IMG/VR virus record: IMGVR_UViG_3300027749_000163
Coordinates: 1-49,279 of that record
Source of the DNA: a virus
Length of the DNA: 49,279 nucleotides
Reading direction: 5' to 3' (one strand)
Both the position numbers and the translations under genes were made by a program. Under the pieces are notes generated by a model. It saw nothing but the letters and a program-made list of their open reading frames with translations, did not search any database and had not been told where the DNA came from. Positions 3,876 to 34,953 of this stretch are shown here, piece by piece. Within the stretch, counting starts at the first letter, position 1. Each line of letters starts with the position of its first letter.

Positions 3876-4069
3876 TATTTCTTTTTACTTTTTTTCCATT
3901 TACCGCCTTTACTTTTATAGCGTTTAGAAGCTGCACCACTTGCATATGCCGAAGGCCATACATCATAGTTAGATTTAGCCCATGCAACACAAGATTGCCA
4001 TAATGAAGGATTCGTTGGTGTATTTTTTTCTAAAATTGAAAAGTCCTCAAAATTTAATATTTGTTTCAT
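3875..4069 (-). CDS. Small basic protein with capsid-targeting-like N-terminus
   Basis: 64 residues using the ATG at 4069, chosen because it gives MKQILNFEDFSILEK, matching the N-terminal peptide of other genes here; an upstream in-frame ATG at 4132 runs into the terminase small subunit gene. I-L-E at residues 12-14 is a possible prohead protease site. The rest contains NPSLWQSCVAWAKSNYDVWP, AYASGAASKRYKSKGGKWKK and a Lys-rich end. This matches a common small phage/viral family with a YPSAYANxxxxKWYKxKGG signature. It is likely packaged with, or bound to, DNA; this is inference. Confidence 0.7.
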   Translation of the reverse strand: MKQILNFEDFSILEKNTPTNPSLWQSCVAWAKSNYDVWPSAYASGAASKRYKSKGGKWKKSKKK

Positions 4070-4079
4070 AAAGTATATA

Positions 4080-4688
4080 TTATTTATTTTTAAGATAATT
4101 TGATACCATATCATTAATTCTTCTAGAATCAACTACCATATTATCTTCTTTACCCTCGTCTTCGCTTATATCTTCTTCAACTTGGCTTTGAACTTCATTT
4201 AATCCAAGATCTTTTCTAATTTCTTTATAAAATTTTTCCAATTCCGATTTAACTGATGTATTAAATTTTATATTTTCACGCATTTGATTCATAGTTTGAT
4301 TTACAACTTCATGCATTCTAGCATTATTTTCACCATTATCAACTTGTCTTAATTGAGATATAAAATGTTTCTTAGTCATTTTTATTAAAAATAGAGTTTC
4401 CGCATAGTTTTGTGCATCTTCTTCAACTTTATTTTTAACATAAGGATGTTCTTTTACTTTTGGCGCATCACCTAAATATAGATCGACTAGAGAATTTAAT
4501 ACCGTATCAGCACGATATTTAGAATCGACTATATCAGAATCATAATTATATATTTCTATTTCACCTAATTCAGGCAGGTCGTCCATCTTCGCAAGATACA
4601 TATTGACATCTAAGTCTTTATTATCCTCCTGTATCTTATTAAATTCTTCTTGGAGGTTGTTTATTTTGTCTGTTTTCTTATCACTCAT
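4080..4688 (-). CDS. Putative small terminase subunit (gp16-like)
   Basis: 202 residues, mostly helical and acidic. It lies directly divergent from the large terminase gene. It has the features of T4 gp16: an N-terminal acidic stretch with DLPELGEIEIYNYDSD (compare the DLPGIDGEEIKVYEP phrase of T4 gp16), a central helical pair that would form the oligomer, and an acidic tail. In T4-type phages this subunit forms a ring that regulates the ATPase and recognises packaging DNA. The assignment rests on this phrase, size and position, not on strong identity; an unrelated coiled-coil protein remains possible. Confidence 0.55.
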   Translation of the reverse strand: MSDKKTDKINNLQEEFNKIQEDNKDLDVNMYLAKMDDLPELGEIEIYNYDSDIVDSKYRADTVLNSLVDLYLGDAPKVKEHPYVKNKVEEDAQNYAETLFLIKMTKKHFISQLRQVDNGENNARMHEVVNQTMNQMRENIKFNTSVKSELEKFYKEIRKDLGLNEVQSQVEEDISEDEGKEDNMVVDSRRINDMVSNYLKNK

Positions 4689-4706
4689 AGGAGTTTTGAT
4701 TTTTAC

Positions 4707-4717
4707 TATATATATAA
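4707..4717 (+). promoter_or_regulatory. Putative late promoter for terL
   Basis: TATATATATAA lies 26 bases before the terminase ATG with no visible -35 box. It belongs to the TATATA-type set described in the findings. Confidence 0.4.
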
Positions 4718-4732
4718 AAAAACATATTTCTT

Positions 4733-5269
4733 ATGGCAACTGCGAAAAAGCAACAACAAGAAGAAGAAAACAAAAAATTTGTATTTACTAGTAAAAATAT
4801 AACCGAAATAACAGAACAACTTAGTGATGGTATAATACTCAAAAGGTATCAAAATCCATGGCTCAAAAATGAAGTAGGTATAAGAAGAGCTGGTATATCA
4901 TTTGGTATATCACCTGAAGAGGTTCAAGAATATATTAGATGTATGGATGACGTGCAATATTTTGCTGAAAGATATTGTCAAATTAAAAGAGAAGATGGTT
5001 CTATTGGGCCTATAAAATTAAGAGATTATCAGAGAGGTATATTAGATTTATATAAAAATAATCGTGTTATATTATGCGCTAGTCGCCAGTCAGGTAAGTG
5101 TGCCACTGGACAGAGTGGAATAGTAATAGAAAATTCCAATATTAAAACATTGAGCGAATTATACTACACATTGTTATCTTCATATAGAAAATTAACATTT
5201 TTGGAAAAAATAAAAATAAAATTATATAAATTACTTACCCATTTAGACAACATGCACACAAAAATTTAA
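4733..5269 (+). CDS. terL (N-part): Large terminase N-terminal part with N-half of a split intein
   Basis: 178 residues. Residues 1-122 are the N-extein of a gp17-like packaging ATPase: a short Gln/Glu-rich start, an adenine-binding region with LRDYQRGILDLYKNNR (about 96-111) and the Walker A beginning ASRQSGK (116-122). Instead of the expected Thr the sequence continues with Cys123, the first residue of an intein (CATGQSGIVIENSNIKTLSE), and stops 56 residues later. The partner half is encoded at 6751. Trans-splicing would join K122 to T144 of the downstream protein and recreate GKT. Neither half alone has a complete Walker A motif, so splicing should be needed for DNA packaging. Confidence 0.92.
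   Translation: MATAKKQQQEEENKKFVFTSKNITEITEQLSDGIILKRYQNPWLKNEVGIRRAGISFGISPEEVQEYIRCMDDVQYFAERYCQIKREDGSIGPIKLRDYQRGILDLYKNNRVILCASRQSGKCATGQSGIVIENSNIKTLSELYYTLLSSYRKLTFLEKIKIKLYKLLTHLDNMHTKI
5099..5266 (+). other. Split intein N-fragment
   Basis: 56 residues starting at Cys (TGT at 5099). Block A is recognisable (C-x-x-G...V-x-I-E...I-K-T-x-S-E-L-Y), but block B is missing here and is found on the C-fragment instead. This places the split unusually early, as in the metagenomic AceL-TerL and VidaL inteins, which also carry a short N-fragment. The last ~30 residues are Lys-rich helix. Confidence 0.88.
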
Positions 5270-5292
5270 TATATAATAAAAAGGAAATTATT

Positions 5293-6309
5293 ATGATATT
5301 AGAAAATGTTAAAATTTTAGACAACGAAGAAAAAATCACATGTAGATTATGTGGCGCAAGAATGAAAAGAGTATATGGAAAACATATGGAAAATCATGCA
5401 AAGGAAGATGGAATTGATATAAAAACGTATCGAACTATGTATCCGAACGCTCCAATTCAAACTGAAGCAGATCATAAAGCAAATAGTAAATCTTCTGGAC
5501 TACATATGAAAGAACAAAAATACAAAGATATGTTTTCTGAAAAAATTAAAGGTAATAATAATCCAAATCATAAATTAAATACAACAGAAAAGGAAAGAAA
5601 AGAACGAAGTCCATTTTCGAAAGAATTTGTGGGATATAAAAATTTAGAGGAAGTAAACAAACAAAGTGCCGCAAGTAAATTATCAAAAGATGTAGCTAAA
5701 ATAAGGTTATCAACAGCACAAACTGAGTATTGGATTAAAAAAGGATTTAATTTAGAAGATGCTAAATTAAAAGTATCTGAAAGACAAAAAACATTTACAT
5801 TAGATTTATGCATAGAAAAATATGGAGAAGAAAACGGTAGACAAGTTTATACAGATAGACAAAATAGATGGCAGACAAGTTTATTAACTAATGGTAATTT
5901 AAAGTATGGTTATTCTAATGCTAGTCAGGAATTATTTTTAGAAATAATTAAAAATTATAAAAATATTAAAGAATTATCAAAAGTATATTTCGCTACAAAA
6001 AATAATGAACATAAAATTGATAAAAAAGAAGGTGGTATTTGGATATTTGATTTTGCAGATATTAGTAGGGGTAAATTTATAGAATATAATGGTGATAGAT
6101 ATCATGCTAATCCATTATTATATAATGAAAATGATTTTCCACATCCTTTCAGAAAAGGATTTAGTGCAAAATTTTTATGGCAAAAAGATGCAAATAAAAT
6201 TGCGGATGCTGCAAACATTGGTTTTGAAGTTTTAACTATATGGGATTCTGAGTATAAAAAAGATAAAATCGGTACTCTACAAAAATGTTTAGATTTTTTA
6301 AATATATAA
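5293..6309 (+). CDS. Free-standing homing endonuclease, Vsr-like (EDxHD type)
   Basis: 338 residues. The N-terminus holds a Ros/MucR-like zinc finger (C17, C20, H31, H35) followed by a Lys-rich linker. A middle segment (about 170-200) has the CIEKYGEENG phrase often seen in phage endonucleases. The C-terminal ~90 residues have the PD-(D/E)xK fold signature of very-short-patch-repair nucleases: FDFADI, then FIEYNGDRYHANP (E264, D268, H271), then WQKDANKI (D299) and EVLTIWDSEY. Such enzymes are known between the halves of fractured phage genes that carry split inteins. It probably cuts intein-free terL near the Walker A codons and spreads this arrangement. The ATG at 5293 follows an A-rich leader, and atatataata lies 20 bases upstream. 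Confidence 0.85.
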   Translation: MILENVKILDNEEKITCRLCGARMKRVYGKHMENHAKEDGIDIKTYRTMYPNAPIQTEADHKANSKSSGLHMKEQKYKDMFSEKIKGNNNPNHKLNTTEKERKERSPFSKEFVGYKNLEEVNKQSAASKLSKDVAKIRLSTAQTEYWIKKGFNLEDAKLKVSERQKTFTLDLCIEKYGEENGRQVYTDRQNRWQTSLLTNGNLKYGYSNASQELFLEIIKNYKNIKELSKVYFATKNNEHKIDKKEGGIWIFDFADISRGKFIEYNGDRYHANPLLYNENDFPHPFRKGFSAKFLWQKDANKIADAANIGFEVLTIWDSEYKKDKIGTLQKCLDFLNI

Positions 6310-6312
6310 CTA

Positions 6313-6711
6313 ATGAAATATATAAAATTATTTGAAGATTATGAGAATAAATTAACTAAAGAAATGATAATTAATTTATTCGTAAATGCATTAGAAGGAG
6401 GTTCTAATTATTGGTATTATTTAAAAGATATACCTAATGAAGTAAAAAACATAATGAGTAAGAAACATATAGCTACATCTGAGGCGATAGGAGAATTTAT
6501 ATTAAATGGTGGTGAAATACATATTTATGATATAGAAGATGAAGATGATTTATTAGGTAGTATAAATATGAATAATTTACTAGATGCTATAAATACGATG
6601 AAAAAAGAATATTCAGCAAATTACTTAAATATAGTTAGCGAAACTGATGATGCAGAGGATGCGGATATATTTTTACAAATAGCTACTATGGGAAAAATTG
6701 TATTTGGATAA
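6313..6711 (+). CDS. Passenger protein inside the split terL locus
   Basis: 132 residues beginning MKYIKLFEDY, the capsid-targeting-like peptide shared by many genes in the window. The body contains ALEGGSNYWYYL and SEAIGEFILNGGEIHIYDIE followed by an acidic segment. I have seen this type of small domain (xALEGGxNYW) in phage proteins, always without assigned function. It starts three bases after the endonuclease stop, so it is co-transcribed with it. Why a virion-type gene should lie between the two terminase halves is unclear; it may be ancestral neighbourhood trapped by a rearrangement or cargo carried along by homing. Confidence 0.75.
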   Translation: MKYIKLFEDYENKLTKEMIINLFVNALEGGSNYWYYLKDIPNEVKNIMSKKHIATSEAIGEFILNGGEIHIYDIEDEDDLLGSINMNNLLDAINTMKKEYSANYLNIVSETDDAEDADIFLQIATMGKIVFG

Positions 6712-6712
6712 T

Positions 6713-6751
6713 ATGAAATTATTTGAGGTATATAAAAAACATTTAAAATAA
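6713..6751 (+). CDS. 12-residue mini-ORF, possible remnant
   Basis: The reading frame MKLFEVYKKHLK begins one base after the previous stop, and its TAA overlaps the next ATG (TAATG). It reads like a decayed MKxIKLFExF peptide. It may be a remnant of a lost gene or may couple translation into the C-terminal terminase part. No function can be claimed. Confidence 0.3.
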   Translation: MKLFEVYKKHLK

Positions 6752-7179
6752 TGATAAAAAAAATAATATATTTCTTAATACAATTAATTGAGAAATACGA
6801 ATACAGGAATCTTTCATTAGATGAAGAAGATATAAATAAGAAGATACTAAATACAATATCTGGATTAAATATTAAGGTTAAAACTGATACTGGATATGAA
6901 AAAGCAACTGATATACATCTAACACAGCCTTACAAAGTATATGAAATTATACTAGATAATGGTTATCAATTAGAATGTGCTGATAATCATATTTTATTTG
7001 ATGAAAATTTTAATCAAATATTTTGTCAAGATTTAGCTATTAATTCTTATATACAAACTGATTTAGGTTTATCAAAAGTTATTAGAATAAATAAATCTAA
7101 ATGTAAGTTAAGTATGTTTGACTTAACAATTGATCATCCCAATCACAGATTTTATACAAATGGCATATTAAGTCATAAT
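6751..7179 (+). other. Split intein C-fragment
   Basis: 143 residues ending in His-Asn. Block B (DNGYQLECADNHILF, about 69-83) and blocks F/G (DHPNHRFYTNGILSHN) are both present. A leading ~30-residue charged helix may serve to associate with the N-fragment. Having block B on the C-fragment makes this an atypical split. Confidence 0.88.
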
Positions 7180-8964
7180 ACAATTAATGCAGCAATTTCA
7201 ATTTTGCATTTTATTACTTTTAATAATGATAAAAATGTAATGATTGTGGCGAATCTTAGAGATACTACTATTGAAATTGTAGATAAAATTAAATCTATTT
7301 ATGTAAATTTACCATTCTTTTTAAAGGTTGGTATTAAAGGTTGGAATCAAAAATCTATGGTTTGTGAAAATGGTTGTAAAATTAGAACAGCAGCGAGAAG
7401 TAAGACACCAGCGATTGGTTTCACAATTGACTTCTTATATTTGGATGAATTTGCGCACATTCCTTCTAATATTATAGAACCATATTATACCGCAGTATAT
7501 CCAATTGTTGCGGCTGTTAATAACTCCAAAATAATCATAACTTCAACACCAAAAGGAATGAATTTATTTTATAAATTATTAACTGATTCTGAAAGATCGG
7601 AATTAGATCCACTGAAAACAAATTTTAAATCTAAAAGAATATATTGGTATGAAGTAGAAGGAAGATTTGTAACATATTTTAGACTTTTTGAAAATAAATT
7701 ATTTGAACATGGTTTGACAAAAGAAGAAGTATTTGAACAAGTTAAAGCGGCATTTCCACAAACTAAAGTAGAAATGAATTATATAGCTGATTTAGAAAAA
7801 CATGTTGTTTATATTTATAATAAACATAATGGTGTTTTAGTTCCTTCTGAAGATGTTAAAAAGTTTATAGTTGAAAAAGATGGTAAACAAATCTTTATAC
7901 AACAATTAGCCTATGTTACAACGTGGCAAGAAGAAACTACCAAAGAAATTGGTGGTGAAGATGCATTTAATCAAGAATTCGCATTGAGATTTGTTGATGG
8001 TTCACGTTCATTATTAAACGAAGCGTTAATTGACGAATTATTGAAGAATAAAAAAGATTATGTTCATTATCCATCATACGAGTTTGATAGAAGATTGAAG
8101 TTTAATTATGAAGATTTACAATTTGTGGATGATACTAAAATTTTCTCACCATTAGATAGAAATAAAATTAAAGGTATATTCTCAATCGATATATCGGAAG
8201 GACTAGGACAAGATTACTCAGTTATTAACATGTTTAGAATTGCACCAAAACCAATGGAAATTATTGATATGTATAAAAAAGAATATAGGTATATATCGGA
8301 CTTTTTTTACTTACAACAATTTGGTATGTATAGATCTAATTTAGTATCTGTTAAGCAATTGGCTGAATTATTCTATGTATTAGCATTTGAATATTTTAAT
8401 CCTGAGAATTTTAAAGCTGTTATTGAATATAACACATATGGTATGCCATTTTTAGCAGAATTACCACATTTATTTGACGGTAATAATCAATATGGTTCAG
8501 GTATATTTTATAGATATAAACATAGAGTAGATTCGGAAGAAGAAAAAATTGGATTAAGAATAACTTCTACTAAAGAGATATTAGTAAAAGATTATCAAGA
8601 AAATATGAATAAAAGAAATTTTGATATAAACCACCCTACTAATATAAATGAAATTACTACATTTATCAAACATGTTTTACCTTCTGGTAATATAAGATAT
8701 GCCGCTGATACTGGCAATGATGATACTGTAATGAGTATAGTAAATGCATCTAGCGTTTTTTCTAAATTTATGTTTAGAGAAATGGTTGAATCAGCTGCTC
8801 CTGAATTAGTCGATTCGGCTACATTGAAATATTTTAATGATATACTAAAAAATCAAGAACAAGAAGATTATGGTAGTAACCATGATTATGACATATTAAC
8901 AAATGTAAATAAGCAAAGGAAATTCATGAATCAATATGGAATAAGAAATCGTAATAGTTGGTAA
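6751..8964 (+). CDS. terL (C-part): Large terminase C-terminal part with C-half of a split intein
   Basis: 737 residues. Residues 1-143 are the intein C-fragment, ending in FYTNGILSHN; Thr144 is the +1 extein residue. The C-extein has the rest of a gp17-type motor. Walker B FLYLDEFAH is at about 228-236 and the coupling motif TSTPKG at about 264-269. The RNase H-like nuclease acids are D480 (FSIDISEGLGQDYS), E559 (AVIEYNTYG) and D657/D658 (NDDTVMS). With the N-part the spliced protein would be about 716 residues, longer than T4 gp17 (610); a stretch around 300-400 looks like added sequence. The ATG at 6751 was chosen because the intein homology starts soon after it. Confidence 0.92.
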   Translation: MIKKIIYFLIQLIEKYEYRNLSLDEEDINKKILNTISGLNIKVKTDTGYEKATDIHLTQPYKVYEIILDNGYQLECADNHILFDENFNQIFCQDLAINSYIQTDLGLSKVIRINKSKCKLSMFDLTIDHPNHRFYTNGILSHNTINAAISILHFITFNNDKNVMIVANLRDTTIEIVDKIKSIYVNLPFFLKVGIKGWNQKSMVCENGCKIRTAARSKTPAIGFTIDFLYLDEFAHIPSNIIEPYYTAVYPIVAAVNNSKIIITSTPKGMNLFYKLLTDSERSELDPLKTNFKSKRIYWYEVEGRFVTYFRLFENKLFEHGLTKEEVFEQVKAAFPQTKVEMNYIADLEKHVVYIYNKHNGVLVPSEDVKKFIVEKDGKQIFIQQLAYVTTWQEETTKEIGGEDAFNQEFALRFVDGSRSLLNEALIDELLKNKKDYVHYPSYEFDRRLKFNYEDLQFVDDTKIFSPLDRNKIKGIFSIDISEGLGQDYSVINMFRIAPKPMEIIDMYKKEYRYISDFFYLQQFGMYRSNLVSVKQLAELFYVLAFEYFNPENFKAVIEYNTYGMPFLAELPHLFDGNNQYGSGIFYRYKHRVDSEEEKIGLRITSTKEILVKDYQENMNKRNFDINHPTNINEITTFIKHVLPSGNIRYAADTGNDDTVMSIVNASSVFSKFMFREMVESAAPELVDSATLKYFNDILKNQEQEDYGSNHDYDILTNVNKQRKFMNQYGIRNRNSW

Positions 8965-8967
8965 CTA

Positions 8968-9246
8968 TTACGATTCTTCCAATGTCACTGTTAATTCACA
9001 TGCAGATAATTTATTATAAATTATCTGCATTTTTTCTTTATCACCTCTTTTAACATCACATTTACCTTTAAAGTGTATTAAATAGGTACATTGCTCGGCT
9101 TGTTCTTTTTGATGTCCAGCATGTTTAATTAAACAATCAATAACATAATCGAAGCTATGTATATCATCGTTCCATACTATAATTACATATGGATAATTTA
9201 TTATCTCTTCCAATTCTGGACTTTCCAGCTCTTTAATTTTGCCCAT
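8968..9246 (-). CDS. clpS: ClpS-like adaptor for Clp protease
   Basis: 92 residues. ClpS delivers N-degron substrates to ClpAP/ClpCP in the cytoplasm. The signature is clear: YVIIVWNDDIHSFDYVI, then GHQKEQAEQCTYLIHFKGKC and a final CELTVTLEES. N26, D27 and H58 have the same spacing as the E. coli N-degron pocket residues N34, D35 and H66. The gatekeeper Met40 of E. coli is Phe32 here, which could change side-chain preference. It overlaps the upstream UVR-domain gene by 14 bases, so they form one operon. ClpS in a phage is unusual. Confidence 0.85.
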   Translation of the reverse strand: MGKIKELESPELEEIINYPYVIIVWNDDIHSFDYVIDCLIKHAGHQKEQAEQCTYLIHFKGKCDVKRGDKEKMQIIYNKLSACELTVTLEES

Positions 9247-9646
9247 CTAAATTTTTTATTTCCTCATTAATTAAGTTGGCTAATTCATAATTTTCATTAT
9301 GAATAGCTGCTTGCATTTCTTTTTTCAATTGTTCTTTAGATTTATTTTGGGTTTCTAAAGGTCCGCAATTTAATAAAATAAAATCTTTAAAAATTTCCGA
9401 TTTATAACTTTTAATAAAACTAACTTGATTATCATCTACCTTAGTATAAAACCATACTTTTTTTGATATAGGGTCATTATTATGAAGTGTAATTTTCATT
9501 ACTTGATCACAATATTTTTTGCCATTTATATTAACTGTATATCCTTCTGGTGGATAGATATTTATTATATCGTCTTTTCGAAGTAATTTTAATTCTTTAA
9601 TTTTTCTACTTTCGAAGAAACTGAATATTTTATATAACCATTTCAT
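9233..9646 (-). CDS. UVR-motif protein next to ClpS
   Basis: 137 residues. The N-terminal ~95 residues form an unrecognised, probably beta-rich domain. Residues ~103-135 are a UVR motif (LKKEMQAAIHNENYELANLI), the helical hairpin used by UvrB/UvrC and by Clp partners such as McsA and ClpC. With ClpS downstream, a role as a Clp-associated adaptor or modulator is more likely than DNA repair, but this is inferred from context. It is the middle gene of a three-gene minus-strand operon. Confidence 0.75.
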   Translation of the reverse strand: MKWLYKIFSFFESRKIKELKLLRKDDIINIYPPEGYTVNINGKKYCDQVMKITLHNNDPISKKVWFYTKVDDNQVSFIKSYKSEIFKDFILLNCGPLETQNKSKEQLKKEMQAAIHNENYELANLINEEIKNLDGQN

Positions 9647-16391: not shown

Positions 16392-17163
16392 ATGAAGAAG
16401 TGTACTAAATGTGAAAAATTATTGGAGACTATAGAATTTTATTCTAAATTTTCTGTTTGCAAATCTTGTTGTAAGGAAAATTATTTAAATAAAAGAACAG
16501 AAAAAGTAGAATACCAAAGAATATATAATAGCAATAAAATTAAAAAGAGAGAACAAGATAAAAAAATGGCGAGAAAATAATAAAGATAAATATGATTTGA
16601 AAAATAAAAAATGGCGAGAAAACAACCCCGAATATAAAAGAAAATGGGAAGAAAATAATCCTGATTATAATAAAAATTATTATGTAAATAGTATTGAAAA
16701 AATAAAAAATTACCAAATTAATAATAAAGAATCTATTTTAGAAAAAAGAAAAAAATATTACCAAGATAATAAAGAATTGATTAAGAATAAGGTGAAAGAA
16801 TATAAAAGAAACAAGAGAAAAATTGATCCTCTTTTTAAATTAACAGAAAATATTAGAAATTTAATTAAAAATGGATTAAAAAATAGTAATATACTAAAAA
16901 GTTCCAAAACAGAACAAATTTTAGAATGTTCCTATATAGATTTTAAAATATATTTAGAATCCAAATTTGAATCATGGATGTCTTGGGAAAACTACGGGAA
17001 ATATAATGGTGAGTTAAATTATGGCTGGGATATTGATCATATAACTCCTTTATTTGGATGCACAGATAATGATGAAATAATAAATTTAAACAACCATAAT
17101 AATTTACAACCTTTATGTAGTAAGGTGAATAGGGATATCAAAAGAAATATGAAAAGTGAATAA
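16392..17163 (+). pseudogene. HNH homing endonuclease broken by a frameshift in an A7 run
   Basis: Two adjacent frames make one endonuclease. The first (16392-16580) has a zinc ribbon (C4, C7 and a second Cys pair near residues 23-27). The second has KKWRENNPEYKRKW-type repeats and a C-terminal HNH: DIDHITPLFGC then NNLQPLCSKVNRDIKRN. Reading through would need one A less in the run 16560-16566: QDKKWRENN instead of QDKKMARK-stop. Repeats of the kWRENN unit on both sides of the join show the two belong together. It sits between two virion-type genes, a usual place for such elements. It may be a real inactivation, programmed slippage or a sequencing error. Confidence 0.8.
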
Positions 17164-25238: not shown

Positions 25239-25279
25239 AAAAGAAAAAACCTTAACATTAGTTAAGGTTTTTTCTTTTT
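25238..25279. terminator. Bidirectional terminator
   Basis: 19-bp stem AAAAAGAAAAAACCTTAAC / complement with loop ATTA. It carries the stop and the Lys-Pro codons of the convergent minus-strand gene. Confidence 0.85.
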
Positions 25280-25642
25280 AGGGTTATCTACACCATATTT
25301 TTCTATTAATGTAGTTTGTATTTTATTTCTTATTTCTTTACTTTGTATCGGATAATCTACACCGTAACTTTCATTTAAAGATTTTCTTCTTTTATGCTCA
25401 GAACATTTACGGCAATTATATTCACCCCATACATTGTCATATTTTATGTAATTTTTATACATAACTTCTTTTTCTTTGCCGCAAAAATCACATTTGCATA
25501 AAATTTTATAGTGACTACCAGTAGATAAAAGTCCCGGTGGAATAACTATAGTGTCACCAATACTAACGCTATAACCACATTCTTCATAGTGTTCATAATT
25601 AGATTCATTTATTTTAACGGTAACTTCTTTTGTTAGTATCAT
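25262..25642 (-). CDS. Zinc-ribbon protein, probably a homing-endonuclease fragment
   Basis: 126 residues. A four-Cys zinc ribbon (CKCDFCGKEKE ... YNCRKCSEHKRR) is followed by two copies of a DNA-binding unit, SYGVDYPIQSKEIRNKIQTT then EKYGVDNPKK. This unit is typical of phage endonucleases, where a nuclease domain follows; here the gene ends within the second unit in a terminator. It may be a truncated homing endonuclease beside the portal gene, or a stand-alone DNA-binding protein. Confidence 0.65.
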   Translation of the reverse strand: MILTKEVTVKINESNYEHYEECGYSVSIGDTIVIPPGLLSTGSHYKILCKCDFCGKEKEVMYKNYIKYDNVWGEYNCRKCSEHKRRKSLNESYGVDYPIQSKEIRNKIQTTLIEKYGVDNPKKKKP

Positions 25643-26160: not shown

Positions 26161-28296
26161 ATGAAACCAGTAATGATTATTGAAAACAATAATAATCCAT
26201 TAAGTTTAAATGAGGAATTTGTTAGTTCTAATGGTAAGAAGTCTTATTTATTAGGTGGTACTTTCACTGAATTCGATATTAAAAATCGTAATGAAAGAAT
26301 ATATACTGCCCCAAGATTTCTACCATGCTTAGAAGAACTTAACTACAGAATAACTAACATGGGTGTTTATGGTGAATTTGACCATCCAGATGTATTTGAT
26401 ACTTCTTTACAAAGAGCTTCACACGTTGTGAAAGAAGCTATTTTTAATAAAGAGGCAAATAGAATTGAGGGTAAAATTCAATTATTATCAACATTTTGGG
26501 GAAAAGAAGCAAGAGCATTGGTTGAAGACCAGTGTCCTATTTTCGTTTCTTCTAGAGCAGCAGGTGTTACCGAGAATGACGGAACTGTAACTCTTAAAAA
26601 ATTATTCACTTATGACATCGTAGCTGACCCAGGTTTTGGTTCCGCTAAAATGAGTTCAATAAATGAATCTTTAAATTATTCAAATAACTCTAATTTCAGA
26701 ATCTATGAAATGAATGACGAGTCAAAAATTAATGATATTTTCAACATGAACAACAATGATTATGTTACAAAAGAACAAATCTCTGATTATTCTAACCATT
26801 TAATTGACGAGATAGCTAAAATTAAGAAATCTGTAAATGAAGCCGTTAAAAAGGGTAATATGGATCCTAAAAAGTTGGAAAAACTTCTTGAATACTACGA
26901 AGTATTAAACAGCACTAACTCTCAAATGGTTAAATATTTAGACTATTTAGCTGAAACTGTACAAGTAGTGGTTAATGAAAATAAAAATTTAAGAGAAACT
27001 TCTGAAAAATTAATTCAACATAATGACTACTTAACTGAAAATCTTGAAAAAGCTATCGGTTATAGTGAATATATTGCTGAAAAAGTTGATCAAAATATTG
27101 TTTATGTTGAACACATTGCTGAAAACTTAGATAAAACTATTGGTTATACAGAATATATTGCTGAAAACTTAGATAAAACTATTGCTTATGGTGAATATAT
27201 AGCTGAAAACTTAGATAAAACTATTGCCTATGGTGAGTATATCGCTGAAAACTTAGATAAATCTATCGCTTATGGTGAGTATATCGCTGAAAACTTAGAT
27301 AAATCTATCGCTTATGGTGAATATATCGCTGAAAGTGTAGATAATGCAATTGCCTATTCGGAATATTTAGCTGAACATGTTGAAGGCAACATTGCTTACT
27401 CTGAATACATTGCTGAACATTTAGATGAAAATATCGCTTATGGTGAATATATTGCTGAAAACTTAGATAAAGCTATTTCTTATGCTGGTTTAATTTCAGA
27501 AAAATTAAATGGTAATAAAATTAATGAAGATGCATCATCTTCTGCAATACCAACATTAGAAGAGTGGGGGTTTGAAAATGAAATAGAAGAACCAACTTCA
27601 TTCGAAACTGAAGAAGTATTGGAAGAAGAACCAACTGAAGAAGCACCAATATTTATTGATGCACCTTCAATTGAAGTTACTAACGAATTACCAACAGTTG
27701 ATGCTCCTATGGTTGACGTAACAAATGTTACTATCGAAACTACTGAAGCTGAACCAGCTATTCCTTCATTTACAGGTGAATCTGATTCTCAATTATCTTC
27801 ACAAATAGATAATTTAATTGCTGAGGCTAAAAAACGTAAAGCAGTTGAATCAAATGATTTACATTTCTTAAAGTTCTTAAATAAGTCACAAGTTGATAGC
27901 TACTATAGCTTAACAAATGAAGAACAAGAATCTGTTAAAATACATATTAACGGTAAATCTTACTTCAACAATGGTGACGTTTTAAAGCTAGTTCAAGAAG
28001 CATTATCAGTTAAATCTGAAACTATGGAAGAAAAAATTGTAAGATTAATTCCAGAATCAGTTAAACCTATGTGGGAAAATTTAAATGAATCTGCAAAGAA
28101 ATCAATTTTATCTCAAGCTAAATTAGGTTATGATTTAACAACTGAATCTTCAATTGAACATTTCTGGTATACTAGAAATTTAAAGAAAAATGAATCTACT
28201 AAGACTTTAGTAAACCATGATTCTTTAATCCAAGAAGATAAACTTTCAGATAAAGATGTTAATTCAATCTTAGAAAGAATTAAGAGTTTAAAATAA
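26161..28296 (+). CDS. Prohead protease (gp21-like) fused to a repetitive scaffold domain
   Basis: 711 residues. Residues ~20-165 are a gp21-type serine protease: GEFDHP with His75, VSSRAAG with Ser130/131, and YDIVADPGF with an Asp. T4 gp21 is only 212 residues and the scaffold gp22 is separate. Here the chain continues into ~540 residues that look like a scaffold core: a coiled coil, about eleven 14-residue repeats of the type YIAENLDKTIAYGE (about 289-444), an acidic Pro/Glu/Thr linker and a helical C-terminus. [LI]-N-E sites, the T4 cleavage type, occur at E18, E169 (right after the protease), E456 (right after the repeats) and near the C-terminus, so the fusion could cut itself into parts. 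Confidence 0.85.
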   Translation: MKPVMIIENNNNPLSLNEEFVSSNGKKSYLLGGTFTEFDIKNRNERIYTAPRFLPCLEELNYRITNMGVYGEFDHPDVFDTSLQRASHVVKEAIFNKEANRIEGKIQLLSTFWGKEARALVEDQCPIFVSSRAAGVTENDGTVTLKKLFTYDIVADPGFGSAKMSSINESLNYSNNSNFRIYEMNDESKINDIFNMNNNDYVTKEQISDYSNHLIDEIAKIKKSVNEAVKKGNMDPKKLEKLLEYYEVLNSTNSQMVKYLDYLAETVQVVVNENKNLRETSEKLIQHNDYLTENLEKAIGYSEYIAEKVDQNIVYVEHIAENLDKTIGYTEYIAENLDKTIAYGEYIAENLDKTIAYGEYIAENLDKSIAYGEYIAENLDKSIAYGEYIAESVDNAIAYSEYLAEHVEGNIAYSEYIAEHLDENIAYGEYIAENLDKAISYAGLISEKLNGNKINEDASSSAIPTLEEWGFENEIEEPTSFETEEVLEEEPTEEAPIFIDAPSIEVTNELPTVDAPMVDVTNVTIETTEAEPAIPSFTGESDSQLSSQIDNLIAEAKKRKAVESNDLHFLKFLNKSQVDSYYSLTNEEQESVKIHINGKSYFNNGDVLKLVQEALSVKSETMEEKIVRLIPESVKPMWENLNESAKKSILSQAKLGYDLTTESSIEHFWYTRNLKKNESTKTLVNHDSLIQEDKLSDKDVNSILERIKSLK
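27025..27490 (+). repeat. 42-base coding repeats (14-residue helical repeat)
   Basis: About eleven copies of a 42-base unit encoding [E]YIAENLDKTIAYG-like peptides. The three central copies are nearly identical in DNA and the outer ones diverged, as expected for growth by recombination in the middle. 14 residues equal two heptads of an amphipathic helix. Confidence 0.88.
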
Positions 28297-33276: not shown

Positions 33277-34044
33277 ATGGAATTACAAAATATACCCAAA
33301 ATAACATATGTTATTGCGTATCAACATAAGCCAGATAGACTTCAAAATTTAAGAAGAGTTTTAGAATGGCTACAACCTTTCCAAGGTTTAGAAATACTTT
33401 TAGTTGAACAGGATAAAGTATCTAAAATAGCCGAACTTAATTTAAGAGTTAAACATGTTTTTATTAAAAGTGAATTACCATTTAATAAAGCTTGGGCATT
33501 TAATGTAGCTACAAGATATATCACGACACCTATTATTATATTTGGTGACTCTGATTTAATCATTCATCCAAATTCTTTTATCCAAGGTGTTCAAGCATTA
33601 GATAATTATGATTGTGTAAATCCATATAATTCTGTTGTAGATTTAACACCACAAGAGGCACAAATGGATTTAAATAGTATATTACAAATTGATAGAATCG
33701 GTAGGGGAGAAGCTGCTGATGATATACAAAAAGTTCCTTTATGTGGTGGTATTATAATGTTCAAAAAAGAAAAATTATATGAAATTGGTGGATGGAATCA
33801 GGACTTCATATCATGGGGTGGTGAAGATGACTTTCAATCCTTAAAGGTCAAGACGTTTTTAACACACACAACTTTATCTAACAGATGCTATCACTTTTAT
33901 CACGAGAAAGCAAAAATAGATATGAAATTATACCAAAGAAATCTACAAATTTTAAATCATTTTCAAAATACTACAAAAGAACAATTAAAAAAACATATTG
34001 ACATGTCTTTACCAAATATTGGTAAATTAAATCAGTTTAGTTAA
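33277..34044 (+). CDS. GT-A glycosyltransferase
   Basis: 255 residues. N-terminal nucleotide-sugar fold with ITYVIAYQHKPDRLQNLRR, metal-binding DSD at 91-93 (FGDSDLIIHP), and an acceptor region with GGIIMFKKEKLYEIGGWNQD then FISWGGEDDF, which is the signature of the galactosyltransferase-type (GT27/GT7 C-terminal) group. It may decorate virion proteins, phage DNA or host surface sugar. It ends inside the 3' end of the convergent endonuclease gene (18 bases shared). Confidence 0.8.
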   Translation: MELQNIPKITYVIAYQHKPDRLQNLRRVLEWLQPFQGLEILLVEQDKVSKIAELNLRVKHVFIKSELPFNKAWAFNVATRYITTPIIIFGDSDLIIHPNSFIQGVQALDNYDCVNPYNSVVDLTPQEAQMDLNSILQIDRIGRGEAADDIQKVPLCGGIIMFKKEKLYEIGGWNQDFISWGGEDDFQSLKVKTFLTHTTLSNRCYHFYHEKAKIDMKLYQRNLQILNHFQNTTKEQLKKHIDMSLPNIGKLNQFS

Positions 34045-34953
34045 TATATTTTCAATATTGTCAACTTCTGTATAAGGTATCCTTATTAAACGAATATTGT
34101 TATTTTGGCAATATTCGTTTTTTATTTTATCATTTTGTTGTGTATATAACAATTTTTTTTCTCCACCAAAATATCCCATAGGCTTAAAATGCTGTTCTCC
34201 GTCAAATTCAATTATTAAGTTATATTTTTCTAAATAAAAATCAAATGGTAATGCTTCTTTATTTTTGCAGTCTATGAAAGTTTTTTCTCTTTTAAAAACA
34301 ATATTTTTGCTACAAAGATAATTTTCTATTTTTACTTCTCCATGTGAATTCTTGCATAGTTTACAACCTTTACCAATTAAATGATTGTAAGGAATTTGTT
34401 TAAATTCACCATGTTTTTGACATATTATTATAATTGATTCACTTGATTTTTTATAGTTAACTTTAGAATAATTATATTTATCACCATGTACTTTTTTTGC
34501 TCTATCAATGAATATTTTGCTATATTTTGTATTCATTGATTTGGTAAATTTATCACCTTTACAATTAGGACATCCTCTACCATTTATATGCTTATTAGCT
34601 AATTGTTCAAATTCTCCGTGTATAGGACATATTACAATTAATTTGGTTGAATCATTAATATAATCTGTTTTAGAGTAATTATATTTATTATTGTGTATTA
34701 AATTTGATTCTTCAATAAATTTTTCTTTTGTTTTGGTAAAAAGAGTTTTCAATTTGCTTATACCACACAATTTACATGCTTTACCTTGTAAATGGTTATC
34801 TGGTCTTTGTTGAAAGTCGCCATGTATAGGGCATGTAATAGTCCCTGCTATTCTTGCAGTTTCATAAGTAAATTTGTCATAATCATAAAAATTATTATGC
34901 TTAATATTGGCATTTTTTAAAAATTTTAAATAGTTTTTTTCTTGTTTTTTCAT
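34027..34953 (-). CDS. Homing-type endonuclease with three DUF723 zinc modules
   Basis: 308 residues. Three tandem modules of the form [YF]-D-Y-x-K...I-x-C-x-x-H-G-x-F-x-Q...H-x-x-G-x-x-C-x-x-C (about 15-65, 72-135 and 145-200) bind DNA through zinc. The C-terminal ~100 residues are a Vsr/PD-(D/E)xK nuclease: PFDFYLEKYNLIIEFDGEQH, then NDKIKNEYCQNNNIRLIRIP. A free-standing mobile endonuclease; the target is unknown. Genes nearby on the minus strand are accessory. Confidence 0.8.
   Translation of the reverse strand: MKKQEKNYLKFLKNANIKHNNFYDYDKFTYETARIAGTITCPIHGDFQQRPDNHLQGKACKLCGISKLKTLFTKTKEKFIEESNLIHNNKYNYSKTDYINDSTKLIVICPIHGEFEQLANKHINGRGCPNCKGDKFTKSMNTKYSKIFIDRAKKVHGDKYNYSKVNYKKSSESIIIICQKHGEFKQIPYNHLIGKGCKLCKNSHGEVKIENYLCSKNIVFKREKTFIDCKNKEALPFDFYLEKYNLIIEFDGEQHFKPMGYFGGEKKLLYTQQNDKIKNEYCQNNNIRLIRIPYTEVDNIENILTKLI

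What the first reader, a model, noticed from the sequence alone, without database searches (positions are those of the whole stretch)
5270..6750. Endonuclease and passenger gene between the two terminase halves
A Vsr-like endonuclease with a MucR-type finger lies exactly in the break, as in fractured phage genes known from metagenomes. Unusually, a second gene with the capsid-targeting-like N-terminus (6313-6711) and a 12-codon remnant with a similar start lie there too. This suggests either that homing carries cargo or that the break formed within an older gene cluster.
Basis: partly seen in the sequence, partly recalled or inferred. Interest (0 to 1): 0.7.

Follow-up and report, generated by a model that had tools for sequence, protein, structure and literature searches.

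The report
Split-intein terminase break carrying passenger gene
A giant phage's DNA-packaging gene is cut in two by a self-splicing (split-intein) element that carries its own homing-type nuclease plus an unrelated phage gene; comparison with related phages shows such breaks repeatedly take in extra genes and even let the two halves drift apart, because the protein can be rejoined after translation.

Summary
terL is broken at Walker A (GK|T); between the halves lie a 338-aa endonuclease with a Ros/MucR-type finger and a Vsr-fold domain, a 132-aa gene (phrog_2355 family) and a 12-codon ORF. The finding text omits the key feature: the terL ORFs carry the two halves of a split intein. This is a "fractured gene" of the known kind, not an intron.

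Many relatives keep terL intact at exactly this point. The window is the only fractured member of its 6-row terL clade, so the break probably arrived horizontally. The 132-aa gene family was never found beside terL elsewhere, so an older terL gene cluster is not supported.

In 59 related fractures with a same-strand nuclease, the nuclease stop lies within 78 nt of the second intein half in 50 and at least 441 nt away in 9; 8 of those 9 hold non-nuclease genes. Passengers need at least 7 changes on the terL tree. One lineage has a conserved gene block inverted into the break; in the 735-kb phage the halves lie 12.4 kb apart.

Best reading: the nuclease-bearing split intein opens a splice-tolerated site that collects passengers. 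That passengers spread by homing is plausible, not shown. New variant of a known kind.

The parts
4733..5098 (+). TerL N-extein (122 aa), ends ..ILCASRQSGK at Walker A
   Evidence: phrog_5989 terminase E 1.7e-15; contiguous with the C part in empty-site relatives
5099..5269 (+). Intein N half: C123 to stop (56 aa): block A, then helical-looking tail ..RKLTFLEKIKIKLYKLL
   Evidence: read from sequence; R-LT-LE--K--LY conserved in 6 relatives
5293..6309 (+). Free-standing homing-type endonuclease, 338 aa, phrog_22677
   Evidence: 42 homologues; model pLDDT 90
5329..5439 (+). Ros/MucR-type zinc finger of the endonuclease (C17, C20, H31, H35)
   Evidence: profile match to 2jsp, E 0.022; conserved ligands
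5887..6306 (+). Vsr-fold nuclease domain (D253, E264 invariant; H271 at least 90%)
   Evidence: 1cw0 Z 11.1, 3r3p Z 10.4
6285..6335 (+). +1-frame ORF over the nuclease 3' end (MFRFFKYITNEIYKII*), possible relic of the ancestral intC start
   Evidence: in 40 of 59 relatives intC starts inside or right at the nuclease end; suggestive only
6313..6711 (+). Passenger gene, 132 aa, phrog_2355 family, with lineage-specific MKYIKLFED N-terminus
6713..6751 (+). 12-codon ORF MKLFEVYKKHLK*, TAATG overlap with the next start
   Evidence: sequence; role inferred (translational coupling or gene remnant)
6751..7179 (+). Intein C half (143 aa): helical-looking N extension of about 43 aa, block B ADNH, block F, ..SHN|T
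   Evidence: Pfam PF14890; alignment of 8; VidaL E 1.1e-10
7180..8964 (+). TerL C-extein starting TINAAIS (Walker A Thr = +1 residue)
   Evidence: Pfam Terminase_6N E 2.3e-11

Best explanation
The terL gene has been invaded at the GK|T codon boundary of Walker A by a split intein whose gap holds a free-standing Vsr-fold homing-type endonuclease. The two terL ORFs are translated separately; the intein halves associate (probably through the added helices at the split), trans-splice and rebuild an unbroken Walker A. Because splicing acts on proteins, the DNA between the halves is no longer constrained to be short or contiguous: DNA that lands between the nuclease stop and the intC start is tolerated if intC stays translatable. 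The phrog_2355 gene is such a passenger, inserted between nuclease and intC together with a short coupled ORF that now supplies translation into intC. Shown here: the anatomy, the intact empty sites, the break being the exception in its terL clade, and repeated presence of different passengers at the same point. Inferred: splicing activity, cleavage of empty terL, the order of insertion, and spread of the passenger by homing.
For: Intein halves at the exact junction. About 30 related loci have the two exteins joined without insert; DNA of pairs L008/L007 and L018/L022 is collinear around the site except for one insert at GGTAAA|AC or GGTAAG|AC. The window is the only fractured row in a 100%-supported clade of 6. 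Nuclease-to-intC spacing in 59 fractures: 40 overlap or abut, 9 at 9-29 nt, one at 78, nine at 441 or more. Passengers differ between lineages, with at least 7 changes on the terL tree. Core genes lie in the break in L026 and a normally downstream gene lies inside it in L085. Passenger-like genes also occur in fractured Rad50-like and DnaB loci. No Rfam family at E<=1 in the region.
Against: No activity data. No close relative of the window carries the same cassette without the passenger, so the order of events in the window itself is not seen. Nuclease-to-passenger co-transfer rests on one insertion pair (L008/L007), where precise loss in L007 is not excluded. The intN half (56 aa) is longer than in characterised atypically split inteins.
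Confidence: 0.8

Rival explanations
1. Cargo homing: the passenger is part of the mobile unit and is copied with the nuclease into intact terL genes whenever the nuclease cuts them.
For: L008 carries intN-nuclease-passenger-intC as a single 2.17-kb insert relative to 97%-identical L007; L184 and L188 share a 77%-identical passenger; HEG-islands with cargo genes have been proposed (PMC10448857).
Against: Most fractures have no passenger; passengers of different clades are unrelated; L184/L188 may be vertical descent.
Confidence: 0.45
2. Older gene cluster: the passenger was a neighbour of terL before the break formed.
For: In L026 the genes inside the break are ones that lie just upstream of terL in relatives.
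Against: For the window gene, no family member next to terL in relatives; none of the 7 other family loci has terL within the flanks held, up to 6 kb.
Confidence: 0.05
3. Dead relic: the terL break is a degraded insertion, the intein no longer splices, and another TerL is used.
For: Some relatives have lost the nuclease, leaving 3' remnants, and two have unusual intein C-termini.
Against: In the window the Cys1, block B His, penultimate His, Asn and +1 Thr are present, both extein ORFs are open, and splicing would restore the empty-site sequence. A second terL outside this partial record was not excluded.
Confidence: 0.07
4. RNA splicing: the break is a group I or II intron with an intron-encoded nuclease.
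For: Group I introns split terL in other phages (PMC12363816).
Against: No Rfam family at E<=1 over 4000-9500; the intein halves are in frame with both exteins.
Confidence: 0.02

Closest known systems
Fractured genes with split inteins and Vsr-like endonucleases (Dassa et al. 2009, doi 10.1093/nar/gkp095; text not held, known from memory and from citing papers)
   Same: Conserved gene broken at one site, intein halves on the two ORFs, free-standing Vsr-type nuclease between them
   Different: Here passenger genes that are not nucleases lie in the break in several lineages, and the halves can be many kb apart
Atypically split inteins of the VidaL / Cat type (and, from memory, AceL-TerL)
   Same: Split before block B, so the C half carries blocks B, F and G; VidaL and CatC are the closest solved structures by sequence profile
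   Different: N half is 56 aa with a helical-looking tail instead of about 15-25 aa (PMC11923092, PMC10189870); the C half has an N extension of about 43 aa not covered by the VidaL match
HEG-islands (PMC10448857)
   Same: Homing nucleases associated with cargo genes that may spread with them
   Different: HEG-islands bracket cargo with two or more nucleases and have no discrete boundary; here one nuclease and the passenger lie inside a gene split by an intein, with a sharp boundary
Campylobacter phage F379 terL
   Same: Annotated as terL part, 'intron-associated endonuclease', terL part; intein C half detected
   Different: No passenger gene; recorded by its annotators as intron-associated

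Membership tests
Fractured gene (split intein with endonuclease gene in between) | Conserved gene in two ORFs, contiguous in relatives | tested here: met
Fractured gene (split intein with endonuclease gene in between) | Intein N and C halves at the break with splicing residues | tested here: met
   C1, ADNH, penultimate His, Asn, +1 Thr
Fractured gene (split intein with endonuclease gene in between) | Free-standing endonuclease gene inside the break | tested here: met
Fractured gene (split intein with endonuclease gene in between) | Trans-splicing of the halves | not testable with these tools
   needs expression
Atypically split intein (VidaL / AceL type) | Split upstream of block B | tested here: met
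   block B ADNH lies in the C half
Atypically split intein (VidaL / AceL type) | N fragment of about 15-25 aa | tested here: not met
   N half is 56 aa; definition from PMC11923092
Vsr-like homing endonuclease (I-Bth0305I kind) | Vsr fold of the nuclease domain | tested here: met
   1cw0 Z 11.1, rmsd 4.1 over 118; 3r3p Z 10.4, rmsd 2.7 over 94
Vsr-like homing endonuclease (I-Bth0305I kind) | Catalytic acidic and His residues conserved | tested here: inconclusive
   D253 and E264 invariant, H271 at least 90% in 42 homologues; not mapped residue by residue on I-Bth0305I
Vsr-like homing endonuclease (I-Bth0305I kind) | Cleaves the intact insertion site | not testable with these tools
   needs enzyme assay
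phrog_2355 | Profile match over most of the protein | tested here: met
   E 7.6e-13, residues 10-132 of 132
T4-type capsid-targeting sequence | Short N-terminal peptide shared by unrelated proteins | tested here: met
   31 of 363 genes against 0 of 1467 internal Met
T4-type capsid-targeting sequence | Packaging into the head and cleavage by the prohead protease | not testable with these tools
   needs virion proteomics; definition from PMC9026906
HEG-island | Cargo bracketed by two or more homing nucleases | tested here: not met
   one nuclease only in the window break
Group I/II intron | Intron RNA at the break | tested here: not met
   no Rfam family at E<=1 in 4000-9500

The most novel reading that the evidence does not exclude
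Split-intein fractures act as gene-capture and gene-mobilising sites in large phages: the nuclease spreads a cassette that includes passenger phage genes, and trans-splicing lets essential genes be broken up and rearranged around new genes, as in the 735-kb phage, where the terL halves lie 12.4 kb apart.
Probability: 0.45. Interest if true: 0.72.

Novelty: new variant of a known kind. Interest (0 to 1): 0.55.

Why it matters
Fractured genes are known as nuclease-bearing oddities. Recurrent passengers in the same gap, a conserved gene block moved into it, and halves separated by 12 kb suggest that protein trans-splicing turns an essential gene into a landing site for other genes, giving passengers a protected place and possibly a ride on homing. 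It also explains terL genes that look truncated or missing in huge-phage annotations, and it gives natural test cases of how split inteins live: continuous, split with nuclease, split after nuclease loss, split with passengers.

Tried and rejected
Intron at the break: no Rfam hit. Function of the passenger: model pLDDT 82, no PDB match, only uncharacterised phage proteins in BFVD; Pfam DUF7399 only at E 0.037, below its cut-off. Apparent passenger homologues in LR756502 and LR745206 rest on the shared N-terminal motif only. Enrichment of the MKxIKLFED start among passengers: 3 of about 12 by the strict pattern against 8.5% overall, counted by hand, too few to claim. Co-conversion signature next to insertions: no consistent drop or rise of identity at the junctions. 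Most other passengers have no homologue in the loci held. Dassa 2009 is not in the library, so statements about it rest on memory and on papers citing it.

Full report
What is there. The region 4733-8964 holds five ORFs on the plus strand: TerL N part (4733-5269), endonuclease (5293-6309), a 132-aa gene (6313-6711), a 12-codon ORF (6713-6751) and TerL C part (6751-8964). The TerL N part ends its terminase homology at ILCASRQSGK, the Walker A lysine, and continues with CATGQSGIVIEN..., an intein start. The TerL C part begins with 143 residues that end FDLTIDHPNHRFYTNGILSHN, an intein end, and then continues TINAAIS. Pfam gives Intein_splicing (E 7.8e-7, under the curated cut-off) and Terminase_6N. 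A profile of eight C halves finds VidaL (6vgv, E 1.1e-10), the engineered CatC intein (6dsl) and gp41-1 (6qaz) among solved structures. The intein is split before block B, as in VidaL, but both halves carry helical-looking extensions at the split that are conserved across relatives.

The endonuclease. A finger near the N terminus (C17, C20, H31, H35) is conserved in at least 90% of 42 homologues. The sequence profile matches Ros (2jsp) at 13-49 and Vsr at 259-335, each weakly. The AlphaFold model (pLDDT 90) puts residues 199-338 on Vsr (1cw0, Z 11.1, rmsd 4.1 over 118; 1vsr, Z 10.4) and on I-Bth0305I (3r3p, Z 10.4, rmsd 2.7 over 94).

Empty sites and horizontal arrival. In about 30 related loci the two exteins are joined directly. 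DNA alignments of L008 with L007 (97% and 96% identical flanks) and of L018 with L022 are collinear around the site except for one insertion at the same codon boundary. On a tree of terL C-exteins the window lies in a 100%-supported group of six rows: four empty, one (L002) with a different, continuous LAGLIDADG intein at the same site, and the window. Empty and occupied states interchange many times over the tree.

The passenger. The 132-aa gene belongs to phrog_2355. It was not found at E<=0.01 in the 22 other related virus contigs and four huge-phage genomes searched, apart from the near-identical record; a weaker homologue in the 462-kb phage LR756500 lies near 390 kb, terL near 195 kb. 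Seven other phage contigs carry family members in clusters of small genes, with no terL, intein or this nuclease within the flanks held, up to 6 kb. Those homologues start with other residues; the MKYIKLFED start is a motif common to unrelated proteins in the window's phage group (31 of 363 genes). So the gene was not a terL neighbour in these phages, and the cluster reading is not supported.

Passengers recur. Among 83 deduplicated terL loci with this intein, 4 are continuous and 79 split. Where a nuclease lies on the same strand (59 loci), its stop is within 78 nt of the intC start in 50 and 441 nt or more away in nine. Eight of the nine hold genes that are not recognised nucleases (the window, L008, L179, L180, L183, L184, L188, L208); L191 holds a second large ORF that starts like the second nuclease type of L179 and L183 (by inspection). 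Other breaks have passengers without a nuclease: in L026 the genes matching window 1869, 2161 and 2663, which lie upstream of terL in relatives, sit inverted in the break; in L085, from the 735-kb phage LR756501, 12.4 kb and about 17 ORFs separate the halves, among them the homologue of window 11286, normally downstream of terL. The paper reporting the 735-kb genome does not use the words intein, split or homing in its main text (PMC7162821). The passenger label needs at least seven changes on the terL tree. Similar extra genes occur in a fractured Rad50-like gene (L215, L221) and in DnaB (L206).

How the passenger may have entered. In 40 of 59 relatives the intC start lies inside or right at the nuclease 3' end, so intC is probably translated by coupling. 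In the window the +1 frame at the nuclease end reads MFRFFKYITNEIYKII*, like the start of such an intC, and now overlaps the passenger start; the present intC start is coupled (TAATG) to the 12-codon ORF. Window 6294-6335 is 90% identical over 42 nt to the start region of another MKYIKLFENF gene in L002. A passenger fragment joined at short AT-rich similarity is a reasonable reading but is not proved; in DNA of 27% G+C such resemblance is cheap.

Life cycle. Continuous forms (L141, L162, L176) join the two helical extensions directly. L152 has no nuclease, but its N half ends with what look like the nuclease's last residues (DPKQTLKKCIKFLND), so the nuclease was probably deleted there. Gaps in L126 and L139 also hold nuclease 3' remnants. 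L033, L100, L106 and L117 carry a different nuclease type (phrog_3339 in L033) on the opposite strand.

Limits. No splicing, cleavage or homing was measured. Most loci are metagenomic contigs; L026 rests on one contig. The tree is a quick one from about 260 residues. Counts are of deduplicated but not independent sequences. The window record is partial, so a second terL elsewhere cannot be excluded.

Noticed in passing
window 3875(-), 4069(-), 6313(+), 11292(+), 14027(-), 19163(+): Unrelated genes share an MKxIKLFED-like N-terminus; in the phage group 31 of 363 genes against 0 of 1467 internal Met. Possibly a head-targeting peptide as in T4 internal proteins.
   Followed up: partly
L002:6618-9812: A close relative has a continuous intein with a LAGLIDADG nuclease, starting with Ala, at the same GK|T site.
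   Followed up: partly
L008:9553-10656 and the L026 terL C part: A second continuous intein near the TerL C-terminus (..GHDD|C), so these TerLs carry a split and a continuous intein.
   Followed up: no
L085:5072-20256 (LR756501, 735-kb phage) and L084: TerL halves 12.4 kb apart in L085; the intein there ends NLN|T instead of SHN|T. In L084 (462-kb phage) it ends SSQ|T.
   Followed up: partly
L086:3382-6728 (Campylobacter phage F379): Annotated 'intron-associated endonuclease' between terL parts looks like a split-intein fracture.
   Followed up: partly
L081:4040-6376, L206, L219, L215: Related nuclease and intein C halves in fractured DnaB-like helicase and Rad50-like genes.
   Followed up: partly
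window 16597-17163(+), 25262-25642(-), 34027-34953(-): Further nuclease-like ORFs (HNH-like, a fragment resembling the second nuclease type, and one with IIEFDGEQHF), read from sequence only.
   Followed up: no
window 26161-28296: Large ORF with many copies of a YIAENLDKTIAYGE-like repeat; a protein inside the L085 break matches this repeat.
   Followed up: no
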